A DNA stretch of 64,000 nt. Origin: an uncultured Paracoccus sp. Lineage in GTDB: Bacteria; Pseudomonadota; Alphaproteobacteria; Rhodobacterales; Rhodobacteraceae. The notes under the pieces were generated by a model. It was not told the DNA's origin and searched no databases. It saw only the letters and a list, made by a program, of their open reading frames with translations. The translations under genes and the position numbers were made by a program. Of this stretch, positions 35,649 through 64,000 are shown piece after piece. The stretch is from positions 4,780 to 68,779 of the forward strand of contig CAKTBJ010000012.1 in assembly GCA_934533075.1 (NCBI GenBank), read 5' to 3'. Numbering within the stretch: the stretch's first letter is position 1; each line of letters starts with the position of its first letter.

Positions 35649-35984
35649 GCGGGTGTTCCTTGTTTCAATGCGGCCTGCCCCCGGTCGTGGCGGCCGCCCG
35701 ATGCGCGCAATCCGTGCCGCTCATGCGGGGGTCCCTTGCCGCGATGGAACTCGCCTTCGGTTGTGCCGGCACCCCGTTCATGTGGGGCCGGCCCGGCTGG
35801 CTGCCCGATGCGCGTGGTCCTCGCGGCTCATGCGGGGGTCCCTTGCCGCGATGGGACCGTCCCCGGTCGCGCCGGCACCCCGCCCATGTGAGGCCGGCGC
35901 GGACGGCTGCCCGATGCGCGTGGCCCGTGCGGTTCATGCCGGTGCCCCTTGCCGGGATGCCGCCACCCGCCGCGCGCCGGTCAT
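35649..35984 (-). repeat. Start-region echo array upstream of the quinone oxidoreductase
   Basis: About three imperfect copies of a 106-107-bp unit (landmark GCCCGATGCGCG at 35696, 35803 and 35909) fill the spacer. On the minus strand, ATGA or ATG elements occur at 35984, 35937, 35831, 35781 and 35724, before the real ATG at 35648. Each main unit has AAGGG then CCCGCATGAGC, imitating the gene's AAGGAACACCCGCATGACC. The peptide after 35724 (MSGTD...HR...TTGG) resembles the gene's MTDTT-HR...RTGG. The ATPase stop overlaps the first ATG as ATGA, and a 16-codon ORF ends in another ATGA at 35937. Confidence 0.75.
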
Positions 35985-37840
35985 GCCGGCGCGCCTTCCT
36001 TGGCGGCCAGCTTGTCCAGCGCCGCCTGCCCCTCGCCGGGCATCGCCGCCAGCAGCTTGCGGGTATAGTCGGCTTGCGGATCGGCGAAGACCTCATCGAC
36101 CTCGCCCTGCTCGACCACATCGCCGCGATACATGACCAGCACCCGGTCGCACAGGTAACGCACCACGGAAAGATCGTGCGAGATCAGGATGATGGACAGC
36201 GCGCGCTCGCGCCGCAGCCGCAGCAGCAGTTCCAGCAACTGCGCCTGCACCGACACGTCGAGGCCCGAGACGATCTCGTCCGCGATCAGCAGGCGCGGCA
36301 CCGTGCACAGCGCGCGGGCGATGTTCACCCGCTGCTTCTGCCCGCCCGACATCTGCGAGGGGTAACGCTGCGCCATCTCGGGCGCGAGGCCGATTTCCGA
36401 CAGCAGTTCGGCGGCGCGGGTGGCGCGGTCCGCCGCGCCTCCGCGCATGACCTCCATCGCCTGCGTCACGATCTCGCCCACCCGGCGGCGCGGGTTCAGG
36501 GCGGATTGCGGGTCCTGGAACACCATCTGCACATGGTCGCGGCGAAAGGCGGCGGTGGCGGCGTCCATGCCGCTGATGTCGCGGCCCAGAAGCTCCATCG
36601 TGCCGCCGGAAGTCCCCTCCAGCCCCACCAGCAGCCGCGCCAGCGTGCTTTTGCCGCTGCCGCTTTCGCCGACCACGCCGAGGAATTCGCCCTCGGCAAG
36701 GTCCAGCGTCGCGGCGCGCACCGCCGCAAACGTGTCGGGCTTGCCGAACAGGCGCTGTTTGGTGATGTAGTGGCGGGAAATGTCGCGGGCGCGGAACAGC
36801 ACCGGCGCGTCGGGGGCGCGGTGGCGGTGCCGGGGCGGCGGCGGCGGGTTGATGCTGGCGGTGCGCTCGGGCGCGGCGCAAAGGACGGTATGGCCGGGCG
36901 CCACGGTGATCTCGGGCGGCGGCGTGGTGTGGCAGGAGGGTTGCGCCACCGGGCAGCGGGCGGCGAAACGGCAGCCGCCGATCTCCTTCAGCGACATCAG
37001 GCCCGGCATGCGGTCGGGCAGGGTGAACAACCCGCGATGCTCGGACCCCGAGGGCGGGATCGCCAGTTGCAGCGCGCGGGTATAGGGATGGGCCGGATGC
37101 TCGAACACCTCGGCGGCGGGGCCGAACTCGATCTGCTTGCCGGCATAGAGGACCAGCACGTCGTCGCAGATTTCGCGCGCCAGCCGCAGGTCGTGGGTGA
37201 TGAAGATGACCGCCGTGCCGTATTGGCGCTGCATCTTGCCGATCAGGCCGGTGATATGGGCCTGCACCGAGACATCCAGCGCGGTCGTCGGCTCGTCCGC
37301 GATCAGCAGCTTGGGGCGCGACAGGAAGGCCATCGCGATCAGGATGCGCTGGCACATGCCGCCCGAAAGCTGGTGCGGATACTTGTCCAGCACGCCGGCG
37401 GGGTCGTGCAGTTGCACGGAATCCAGTGCCTCGATGGCGGTGGCGCGCCAGTTCGCGACCGCCTGACGGCCGGTGCCGCGCGCGATATGGGCCATATGCT
37501 CGCGGATCTGCTGGCCGATGGTCAGCACCGGGTTCAGCGCCGCCAGAGGCTCCTGCGGGATGAAGGCGATGTCGCGGCCCAGCATGGCGCGGCGCTCGGC
37601 CTCGCCGATGGCCAGCATGTCGCGGCCGTCGAAGGTCAGGCTGCCCTCGCTGACGAAGAAGCGATGCGGCAGAAGCTGGGCGATGGTGCGCCCGATCATC
37701 GACTTGCCGGCGCCGGATTCGCCGACCAGCCCCAGCACCCGGCCCGGCGCAAGCCGGAAGGTCAGCTTGTCCAGCGCGGTGAAGGTGCCCTTGGCATTGC
37801 CGAAGGAAACCGAGACGCCATCGACCGAAAGCAGGCTCAT
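35981..37840 (-). CDS. Fused two-domain dipeptide ABC ATPase (DppD-DppF type)
   Basis: A 619-residue protein with two complete nucleotide-binding halves, replacing separate DppD and DppF. The first half has GESGAGKSMIGR, signature LSGGMCQRI and IADEPTTALDVS; a Cys cluster (CRFAARCP) marks the linker near residue 300. The second half has GESGSGKSTLAR, signature MSGGQKQRV and an atypical Walker B extension IADEIVSGLDVS. The ATG at 37840 lies one base after the permease stop with GGAG upstream; the GTG at 37849 is an alternative. It serves the operon 35981-41358. Confidence 0.92.
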   Translation of the reverse strand: MSLLSVDGVSVSFGNAKGTFTALDKLTFRLAPGRVLGLVGESGAGKSMIGRTIAQLLPHRFFVSEGSLTFDGRDMLAIGEAERRAMLGRDIAFIPQEPLAALNPVLTIGQQIREHMAHIARGTGRQAVANWRATAIEALDSVQLHDPAGVLDKYPHQLSGGMCQRILIAMAFLSRPKLLIADEPTTALDVSVQAHITGLIGKMQRQYGTAVIFITHDLRLAREICDDVLVLYAGKQIEFGPAAEVFEHPAHPYTRALQLAIPPSGSEHRGLFTLPDRMPGLMSLKEIGGCRFAARCPVAQPSCHTTPPPEITVAPGHTVLCAAPERTASINPPPPPRHRHRAPDAPVLFRARDISRHYITKQRLFGKPDTFAAVRAATLDLAEGEFLGVVGESGSGKSTLARLLVGLEGTSGGTMELLGRDISGMDAATAAFRRDHVQMVFQDPQSALNPRRRVGEIVTQAMEVMRGGAADRATRAAELLSEIGLAPEMAQRYPSQMSGGQKQRVNIARALCTVPRLLIADEIVSGLDVSVQAQLLELLLRLRRERALSIILISHDLSVVRYLCDRVLVMYRGDVVEQGEVDEVFADPQADYTRKLLAAMPGEGQAALDKLAAKEGAPA

Positions 37841-37841
37841 G

Positions 37842-62494: not shown

Positions 62495-63465
62495 GTCCGC
62501 AGGATCAGGTGCAGGAACAGCGGCGCGCCGACCAGCGCCGTCAGCACCCCCAGTTGCAGGTCGCGCCCCGGCACCACCAGCCGCACCGCGACATCGGCCG
62601 CCAGCACCATCGCCGCCCCGCCCAGGCCCGAGGCCGCCAGCAGCCGCCCCGGCCGCGCCCCCACCGCGCGGCGCAGCAGATGCGGCACCACCAGCCCGAC
62701 GAAGCCGATGCTGCCGGCCACCGCCACCGCCCCGCCGACCGCCGCCGCCCCGCCCAGCACCAGCGCCAGCCGCAGCCGCCGCAGGTCGATGCCGGAACTG
62801 GCCGCCGCATCCTCGCCCAGCGTCAGCGCGTCCAGCGCCCGCCCGCAGGCCAGCAGCACCGCCAGCCCCGGCAGGATCAGCGGCGCCGCCACCTGCACAT
62901 GCAGCATCGAGCGGTCGGCCAGCGACCCCATCATCCAGAACATGATCTCGCTGGCCGCAAAGGGGTTGGGCGACAGGTTCAGGACCAGCGACGTGCCGGC
63001 CCCGGCCAGCGCCGAGATGGCGATTCCGGCGAGGATCAGCGCCAGCGTGCCGCCGCGCGGTCCGGCCAGCGCCAGCACCAGCAGGACCGAGACCGCCGCC
63101 CCCGCCAGCGCCGCCGCCGGCAGGCCCAGCATCCAGGCCGAGGCCAGCCCGGTCTGCAAGGCCAGCACCGCGCCCAGCGCGGCGGAGGCCGAGGTGCCGA
63201 TCAGCCCCGGCTCGGCCAGCGGGTTGCGCAGGAACCCCTGCATCGCCGCGCCCGAGACCCCCAGCGCGGCGCCGACCAGCAGGCCCAGCAATGCGCGCGG
63301 CAGGCGGATCTCGCGCATGACCAGCGCCAGCACGCCTTCGCCATCCAGCAGCGCGGTCAGGCTCTCGCCCGGTCCCACGCCGGCGGGACCGATCAGCAGC
63401 GAGGCCATGAACAGCGCCGCCACCAGCACCGCCAGCCCGGTCATCAGCACGGCGTGGCGGGTCAT
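62476..63465 (-). CDS. Iron-chelate/cobalamin/heme-type ABC importer permease (FecCD family)
   Basis: A 329-residue permease with about nine to ten membrane segments, typical of FecCD/BtuC. Landmarks are RLPRALLGLLVGAALGVSGA, QGFLRNPLAEPGLIG and GSIGFVGLVVPHLLRR. The ATG at 63465 overlaps a small ORF stop as ATGA. The binding protein of the system probably lies to the right of the window. Confidence 0.93.
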   Translation of the reverse strand: MTRHAVLMTGLAVLVAALFMASLLIGPAGVGPGESLTALLDGEGVLALVMREIRLPRALLGLLVGAALGVSGAAMQGFLRNPLAEPGLIGTSASAALGAVLALQTGLASAWMLGLPAAALAGAAVSVLLVLALAGPRGGTLALILAGIAISALAGAGTSLVLNLSPNPFAASEIMFWMMGSLADRSMLHVQVAAPLILPGLAVLLACGRALDALTLGEDAAASSGIDLRRLRLALVLGGAAAVGGAVAVAGSIGFVGLVVPHLLRRAVGARPGRLLAASGLGGAAMVLAADVAVRLVVPGRDLQLGVLTALVGAPLFLHLILRTRRQGL

Positions 63466-64000
63466 GGGCAGGCCCCCGGCGATAGGGCGATGCGCGGGGA
63501 GCGGGAGATGCCGCAAGCCCGGTCGGCGGCCCTCGGCGTGGCATGGCGGCTCATGGCACCAACCCCTGTCTCGCGTCGTGCAGGGCCGTGATGTTGCACG
63601 GGATGAGGCGGGATACCGCAGGTCCGGCTGGTGTCGATCGGCGGGGCATAACGGCTCATGGCATCAGCCCGCGCTTCGCGTTCCGCGAGCCTGCGGCGGG
63701 GGGCAGGCCGCAAGCCCGGTTGGCGGCCCTCGGCGGGGCATGGCGGCTCATGGCGCCAGCCCCTGCCTGGCGTCCCGCAAGGCCGTGGCGGCGCGCAGGA
63801 TGAGGCGGGATACTGGGAACCCTATCGGTGTTCATCGGCGGGGCATAACGGCTCATGGCATCAGCCCGCGCTTCGCGTTCCGCGAGCCTGCGGCGGGGGG
63901 CAGGCCGCAAGCCCGGTTGGCGGCCCTCGGCGGGGCATGGCGGCTCATGGCGCCAGCCCCTGCCTGGCGTCCCGCAAGGCCGTGGCGGCGCGCAGGATGA
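63466..64000 (-). repeat. Start-region echo array upstream of the FecCD permease, 197-bp period
   Basis: A near-perfect 197-bp unit repeats with landmark positions 63541, 63738 and 63935, and runs off the window edge. Each unit has two start-like elements, GCCATGAGCCGCCATGC and GCCATGAGCCGTTATGC. ATGs fall at 63554, 63659, 63751, 63856 and 63948, spaced 89-105 bp, and the gene's ATG at 63465 is the next in line. Encoded openings MSRHA and MSRYA match the gene's MTRHA. Successive ORFs join by ATGA overlaps (63659, 63465). Confidence 0.85.

What the first reader, a model, noticed from the sequence alone, without database searches (positions are those of the whole stretch)
35649..64000. Start-region echo arrays: spacers built from decayed copies of the downstream gene's start
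At least five spacers between same-strand genes (35649-35984, 43870-44350, 45110-45778, 62272-62494, 63466-64000) share one architecture. The tandem units each carry an ATG in ATGA, GTGA or TGATG context, often with a purine-rich site before it, and partially resemble the opening codons of the gene just downstream, whose own start is the final unit. Seen directly: the repeats, their spacing, the overlaps and the peptide similarities. Inference: recurrent tandem duplication of translation-coupling junctions, giving relay ORFs that either pass ribosomes along or are purely by-products. I know of no described element class with this definition.
Basis: partly seen in the sequence, partly recalled or inferred. 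Interest (0 to 1): 0.9.

Follow-up and report, generated by a model that had tools for sequence, protein, structure and literature searches.

The report
Operon junctions amplified into tandem arrays
In a stretch of a Paracoccus-like genome, several places where two neighbouring genes normally touch appear to have been copied over and over, leaving arrays of decayed false gene starts that may hand ribosomes along to the next real gene.

Summary
Spacers A (35649-35980), B (43870-44408) and C (45111-45777) match their own downstream gene's start better than any of 53 other window starts or 335 starts of a relative. Array E (63466-64000) repeats the substrate-binding-protein/FecCD junction: in 2.71 Mb of fetched relatives it matches only that junction in P. 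aminovorans. D (62272-62475) shows one duplicated start context and fails the test. Relatives hold junctions A, C, D and E as overlaps or near-contacts, so these arrays are derived. The arrays are unlike one another, so not one mobile family. Repeat-bearing same-strand spacers: 6 of 17 here, 4 of 513 in nine other Paracoccus genomes, one of those a true junction duplication. Echo ORFs chain to at or near the real start in five of five arrays by a loose rule set after the fact, in three by a strict one. Tests of the chaining against chance are suggestive, and the strict one is not significant. Peptides show no constraint. Closest known: MIRU coupling repeats, which are mobile.

The parts
35649..35980 (-). 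Array A: echoes of the start of the zinc-type dehydrogenase gene, period 106/107
34701..35648 (-). Downstream gene of A (ADH_N / ADH_zinc_N_2 protein)
   Evidence: Pfam
35981..37840 (-). Upstream gene of A (ABC_tran with oligo_HPY, dipeptide-type transporter ATPase); its stop overlaps ATGA at 35984
35934..35984 (-). Relay ORF A1 (16 aa), ends in the ATGA of the echo at 35937
35665..35937 (-). Relay ORF A2 (90 aa), stops 19 nt before the real start 35648
43870..44408 (-). Array B: one strong echo (43979) and weaker ones of the FAD-oxidase gene start
43976..44350 (-). Relay ORF B1 (124 aa), ends in the ATGA at 43979
43866..43979 (-). Relay ORF B2 (37 aa), ends in the ATGA of the real start 43869
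42481..43869 (-). Downstream gene of B (FAD_binding_4 and FAD-oxidase_C)
   Evidence: Pfam
45111..45777 (-). Array C: echo ATGs at 45664, 45553, 45442, 45334, 45223; 111-nt units in a 219-nt higher-order repeat
45110..45778 (-). Relay ORF C (222 aa) from TGATG at the upstream stop to TGATG at the real start; no homologue at E 1e-3
44409..45110 (-). Downstream gene of C and upstream gene of B, 233 aa; no Pfam match, some homologues named EthD family
45778..46581 (-). Upstream gene of C (Asp/Glu/hydantoin racemase family)
   Evidence: Pfam
62272..62475 (-). Spacer D: one duplicated start context, otherwise not significantly like the gene start
62261..62479 (-). Relay ORF D (72 aa, GTG in GTGA at the upstream stop), stop begins 8 nt past the real ATG 62271
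63466..64000 (-). Array E: SBP-end plus FecCD-start units, 197-nt repeat, cut by the window end; echo ATGs at 63948, 63856, 63751, 63659, 63554
62476..63465 (-). FecCD permease gene, downstream of E and upstream of D
   Evidence: Pfam
61471..62271 (-). ABC ATPase gene, downstream of D
   Evidence: Pfam

Best explanation
Each array arose where it stands, by repeated tandem duplication of the start region or stop-start junction between two operon genes. A duplication that spans a junction leaves the upstream gene's end in the first copy and the downstream gene's start in the last copy, so both proteins stay whole and the middle copies are free to decay (shown: similarity to the own start for A, B, C and to the orthologous junction for E; spacer-free junctions in relatives for A, C, D, E; inferred: order of events, and that B and D arose the same way). 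Echoes keep ribosome sites, ATGA/TGATG contexts and frames well enough that terminating ribosomes could restart from echo to echo up to the real gene, preserving translational coupling across a 200-670 nt spacer (architecture shown; ribosome passage and selection for it inferred, about 40%). The peptides made on the way are by-products.
For: Own-start similarity of A, B, C; E matches its orthologous junction. Spacer-free junctions elsewhere: FecCD start in ATGA or GTGA context in 31 of 31 rows (30 genomes; upstream frame checked only in P. aminovorans, by annotation) and FecCD/ATPase gap, estimated from tblastn ends, -11..+14 nt in 30 of 31 rows, none for L071; A and C overlap in Paracoccus sp. 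S-4012. No pair among seven repeat spacers is alike (21 pairs, z at most 1.7). Same-strand spacers with repeats 6 of 17 here against 4 of 513 (Fisher 8e-8). Own-start test in seven relatives, 1.6 Mb: 1 of 300 same-strand and 1 of 306 other spacers pass. One independent junction duplication in another Paracoccus, G084, with an open chimeric ORF. Relay: loose rule 5 of 5 arrays plus G084, strict 3 of 6; read 1 or 2 bases off, loose completion in 5 of 12 (p 0.025); chains anchored at the upstream stop in 3 of 4 testable arrays (A, C, D yes; B no) against 22 of 241 ordinary spacers of relatives (p 0.004). Echo start windows (-16..+5) agree at 162/198 positions between copies, flanks at 469/749 (A, C, E); without the ATG, identical by choice, 135/171 (p 4e-5 treating positions as independent, which they are not).
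Against: D fails the own-start test. The upstream gene's end is not significantly echoed in A-D (69, 206, 185 and 114 of 389 unrelated ends do as well). Only 5 of 18 echo sites exceed the highest unrelated pair by 90-nt identity. Relay: the loose limit (-20..+10) was set after seeing A; strictly A, D and G084 fail, and strict completion 3 of 6 against 3 of 12 in shifted frames is not significant (p 0.29). With echo sites fixed, shuffles complete the loose chain in 0.2%, 27%, 23%, 69% and 26% (A-E), and neutral simulations in 38-58% when fresh and 3-36% when diverged, so neutrality is not excluded. B's chain starts 58 nt after the upstream stop; E's upstream gene is outside the window. The non-array window spacer 15528-15800 also completes a chain. 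Changes in C fall evenly over codon positions (5/4/5; 13 nonsynonymous, 1 synonymous). No sister strain or expression data.
Confidence: 0.6

Rival explanations
1. Purely neutral junction duplications: tandem duplications happen anywhere, and those spanning a gene junction survive because both genes stay whole. Relay ORFs are what coding pieces give by default. (Same origin as the best explanation, no relay function.)
For: Fresh simulated duplications already complete the relay in 38-58%; a duplication across a convergent junction in G084, where coupling cannot matter, has the same form; peptides unconstrained; the strict relay test is not significant.
Against: Five of five arrays complete a loose relay despite divergence; start windows are better kept than flanks (biased by choice of units); shifted frames complete less often under the loose rule.
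Confidence: 0.5
2. One mobile coupling repeat family, as MIRUs, inserted at start codons.
For: Same ATGA coupling layout as described for MIRUs (PMC12548453, passage).
Against: 21 of 21 array pairs show no similarity above shuffles; units match their own gene. In the fetched relatives the matches at E 1e-3 are the orthologous junction for E and five short ones of 31-68 nt for C, D and 59785-60759.
Confidence: 0.03
3. Ordinary regulatory spacers (promoters, leaders) of a GC-rich genome with chance repeats.
For: Long spacers without start echoes occur elsewhere in the window.
Against: Own-start ranks 0 of 53 and 0 of 335 for A, B, C; repeat copies up to 99% alike in E and 93% in C; no Rfam match at gathering score in 30000-64000. 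Promoters were not mapped.
Confidence: 0.04

Closest known systems
Mycobacterial interspersed repetitive units (MIRUs; Supply 1997 as cited in PMC12548453; review passages seen, original not seen)
   Same: Repeat units whose small ORF couples to the next gene through a stop-start overlap, which the review thinks softens the effect of the inserted DNA
   Different: MIRUs appear mobile and are one family; here each array is unlike the others and resembles its own start or junction
Translational coupling by overlapping ATGA / TGATG gene pairs (PMC6728339, start of abstract seen)
   Same: The unexpanded junctions in relatives are of this kind, and echo ORFs repeat it
   Different: Here the overlap is multiplied into a chain
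Bacterial minisatellites / VNTRs (recalled, no call)
   Same: Tandem units of about 90-220 nt, higher-order repeats, near-identical copies
   Different: The unit is an operon junction or gene start and carries initiation sites

Membership tests
MIRU | One family of related units spread over unrelated loci | tested here: not met
   21 of 21 array pairs z at most 1.7
MIRU | Unit ORF coupled to the next gene at -4 nt | tested here: inconclusive
   Last ORF ends in the ATGA of the real start in B and E (2 of 5); C ends in TGATG (1-nt overlap); A stops 19 nt before, D 8 nt after
MIRU | Mobile insertion at start codons | tested here: not met
   Units of A, B, C, E derive from the resident start or junction; D not decided
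Minisatellite / VNTR | Head-to-tail copies | tested here: met
   A, C, E by TRF, B by self-alignment; D has one duplicated stretch only
Minisatellite / VNTR | Copy number differs between strains | not testable with these tools
   No whole genome is held for the window; next homologue of the 233-aa protein after the window's own is 80% identical
Overlapping-gene translational coupling | Junction in relatives is a stop-start overlap or near-contact | tested here: met
   A, C, D, E in relatives; B not comparable, its two genes are not neighbours in S-4012
Overlapping-gene translational coupling | Ribosomes reinitiate across the junction | not testable with these tools
   needs expression data

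The most novel reading that the evidence does not exclude
A lineage in which operon junctions repeatedly grow into self-derived translation relays: chains of short, meaningless ORFs, kept open and in frame by selection, that carry ribosomes from one gene to the next across hundreds of bases.
Probability: 0.3. Interest if true: 0.8.

Novelty: new variant of a known kind. Interest (0 to 1): 0.55.

Why it matters
It shows a concrete route by which spacers are born inside gene-dense operons, and gives natural test objects for whether translational coupling can run through a chain of dummy ORFs. If relays work, spacer length says little about whether two genes are coupled. If they do not, the arrays still document survivorship: tandem duplications persist where they break no gene. 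Literature: seven searches of the held open-licence library for junction, relay or intergenic repeat arrays and two for MIRU-like repeats. Listings only were read, and one search listed 15 of 160 papers, 15 of 34. By title and abstract start none of the listed papers describes arrays born from their own junction; most subscription papers are not in that library.

Tried and rejected
Mobile repeat family (rejected). Conserved relay protein: ORF C has no homologue at E 1e-3; ORFs C and B1 have no Pfam match. RNA family: none at gathering score. Upstream-gene end as the source in A-D: not significant. The gene caller put the start of B's gene at 43755, so one search missed array B; I used 43869 by hand and rechecked the anchored chain with it (still none for B). 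Pfam translated that gene in a wrong frame (from 42434); one search gives the right one. Relative hits judged not to be junction duplications by reading: G117 (a doubled tRNA-like stretch, no tRNA scan run), G074 and G060 (look like missed coding sequence); they stay in the 4 of 513. Control spacers: 3 of 364 divergent or convergent spacers in relatives and 1 of 10 in the window hold repeats. All gene calls are from my own simple caller, not from an annotation.
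Full report
What the window is. GC is 69.8%. blastn of the FecCD region against plasmids finds Paracoccus most often, P. aminovorans first at 82%. Of six catabolic-region proteins found in Paracoccus sp. S-4012, five are 73-87% identical and the FAD-type one 57%; DNA of 30457-33213 is 80% identical there. No whole genome is held for the window. The genes beside the arrays lie on the minus strand. Genes were called with a simple codon-usage script of mine.

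Is the resemblance real? Wherever at least 60 nt of spacer remain after removal of the last 40 nt before the gene, the start region of the downstream gene was aligned to its own spacer and compared with 53 other starts of the window: 25 tests. A, B and C are above 53 of 53 (z 4.5, 9.5, 7.5); D and E are each matched by 3 of 53; the other 20 do not exceed z 2.5. The clearest echo is in B: the alignment runs from about -36 to codon 22 with the ATGA in register. Echo-to-real identity over 90 nt is 0.68 for that copy, 0.53-0.61 for six sites in C (the first being the upstream gene's own stop overlap), 0.53-0.55 for three in A, 0.53 in D, 0.42-0.50 for five in E, 0.35 for B's 44350 and 0.20 for the first site of A; unrelated starts give 0.35 (sd 0.09, maximum 0.55, 60 pairs). 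So 5 of 18 sites exceed that maximum.

Array E needs its other half. In P. aminovorans the substrate-binding-protein gene and the FecCD gene overlap by 4 nt (annotation; sequence). That junction aligns to array E across both the end of the first gene and the start of the second, and blastn of E against 2.71 Mb of fetched relatives, at E 1e-3, finds that junction alone, the same place held under three locus ids. So E repeats the junction and not only the start.

The arrays are derived. In 31 of 31 rows (30 genomes, P. aminovorans twice) the FecCD start stands in ATGA or GTGA context; the FecCD-ATPase gap, estimated from tblastn ends, is -11 to +14 nt in 30 rows and missing in one. The upstream frame was checked only in P. 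aminovorans. In S-4012 the transporter/dehydrogenase junction (A) is a GTGA overlap and the racemase/233-aa junction (C) an ATGA overlap. For B the two genes are not neighbours in S-4012, so its earlier state is unknown.

How special is it? Self-alignment of spacers of 80-1500 nt with 150-nt flanks found repeats (score 28 or more) in 6 of 17 same-strand spacers of the window: A, B, C, E, 47032-47637 and 59785-60759; D does not reach the score. In 2.4 Mb from nine other Paracoccus genomes it found 4 of 513, of which by inspection only one, in G084, is a true junction duplication. Fisher 8e-8, or 3e-9 with the other three dropped. The own-start test on 1.6 Mb of seven of these genomes passes 1 of 300 same-strand spacers (the G084 one) and 1 of 306 others. 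All six same-strand hits of the window lie in 35-64 kb, so this is one region of one genome, not a sample of it.

The G084 case is instructive. It is a single duplication of about 190 nt: the upstream gene's end and stop, an echo of the downstream start, a decayed copy of the upstream end, then the real start. Between the two starts lies one open chimeric ORF that stops just before a purine-rich site and the real ATG. The same genome carries a duplication over a convergent junction. Both fit a simple survivorship rule: a tandem duplication spanning a junction leaves both genes whole.

Relays. B: ATG 44350 opens 124 codons ending in the ATGA at 43979, whose 37 codons end in the ATGA of the real start 43869. 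C: the TGATG at the upstream stop opens 222 codons ending in the TGATG of the real start; the five inner echo ATGs are in the same frame. E: ATGA 63948 to 63856 to 63659 to the real 63465, with 63751 and 63554 joining. A: 35984 to 35937, then a 90-codon ORF stopping 19 nt before the real start; the echo at 35831 opens 17 codons and ends in an ATGA at 35781 that is not an echo start. D: the GTGA at the upstream stop opens 72 codons whose stop begins 8 nt past the next gene's ATG.

Could that be chance? With echo sites fixed and the rest shuffled, the loose chain completes in 0.2, 27, 23, 69 and 26% (A-E, 2000 shuffles each); under the strict limit of 4 nt A and D do not complete, and B, C, E do so in 27, 22 and 24% of shuffles. 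Neutral simulations from 274 real overlap junctions complete a loose relay in 44-58% without divergence and 6-36% with it; strict 38-51% and 3-28%. Observed: loose 6 of 6 including G084, strict 3 of 6. Read one or two bases off, the same sequences complete in 5 of 12 loose cases (p 0.025) and 3 of 12 strict ones (p 0.29). From the upstream stop, a chain reaches the next gene in 22 of 241 ordinary spacers of relatives, and in A, C and D but not B (3 of 4, p 0.004); E's upstream stop is not in the window. Of the window's eight spacers in that test four are positive: A, C, D and the non-array spacer 15528-15800. I read this as suggestive of kept relays; the loose limit, chosen after the fact, and the small number of arrays are the main weaknesses.

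What is kept. Between echoes, 162 of 198 compared positions in -16..+5 agree and 469 of 749 in the flanks (A, C, E, three copies each, near-identical copies left out); without the ATG, identical by choice of the copies, 135 of 171. Codon positions change evenly in C (14 changes in 213 nt) and 13 of the 14 change the amino acid, so the peptide is not being kept; ORF C has no relative at E 1e-3 in the protein collection.

Against what is known. The review PMC12548453 (passages seen) describes MIRUs as apparently mobile repeats that insert at start codons and couple at -4 nt, likely with little effect on the gene. The arrays here share the layout in part but fail two defining features, one shared family and mobility. 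Rfam has no match at gathering score in 30000-64000.

Noticed in passing
59785-60759: Tandem array with copies spaced 170-194 nt between the ROK-family gene and the gene at 60760; not significantly like the downstream start (z 1.1).
   Followed up: partly
47032-47637: Repeats of a GC-rich unit containing GCGAGGGCGCG between same-strand genes; no start similarity (z 0.3).
   Followed up: partly
48565-49710: Long spacer whose plus strand seems to hold decayed pieces of a transporter-like gene (my reading of the sequence, not searched).
   Followed up: no
G084 contig C4, 37229-37780: Tandem duplication across a convergent gene junction in another Paracoccus, a junction type where coupling cannot matter.
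   Followed up: partly
25904-26980: Divergent spacer of 1077 nt with a 252-column repeat at 62% identity.
   Followed up: no
62272-62475 (spacer D): A 68-nt stretch is 82% identical to a place in G084 (L134), unexplained.
   Followed up: no
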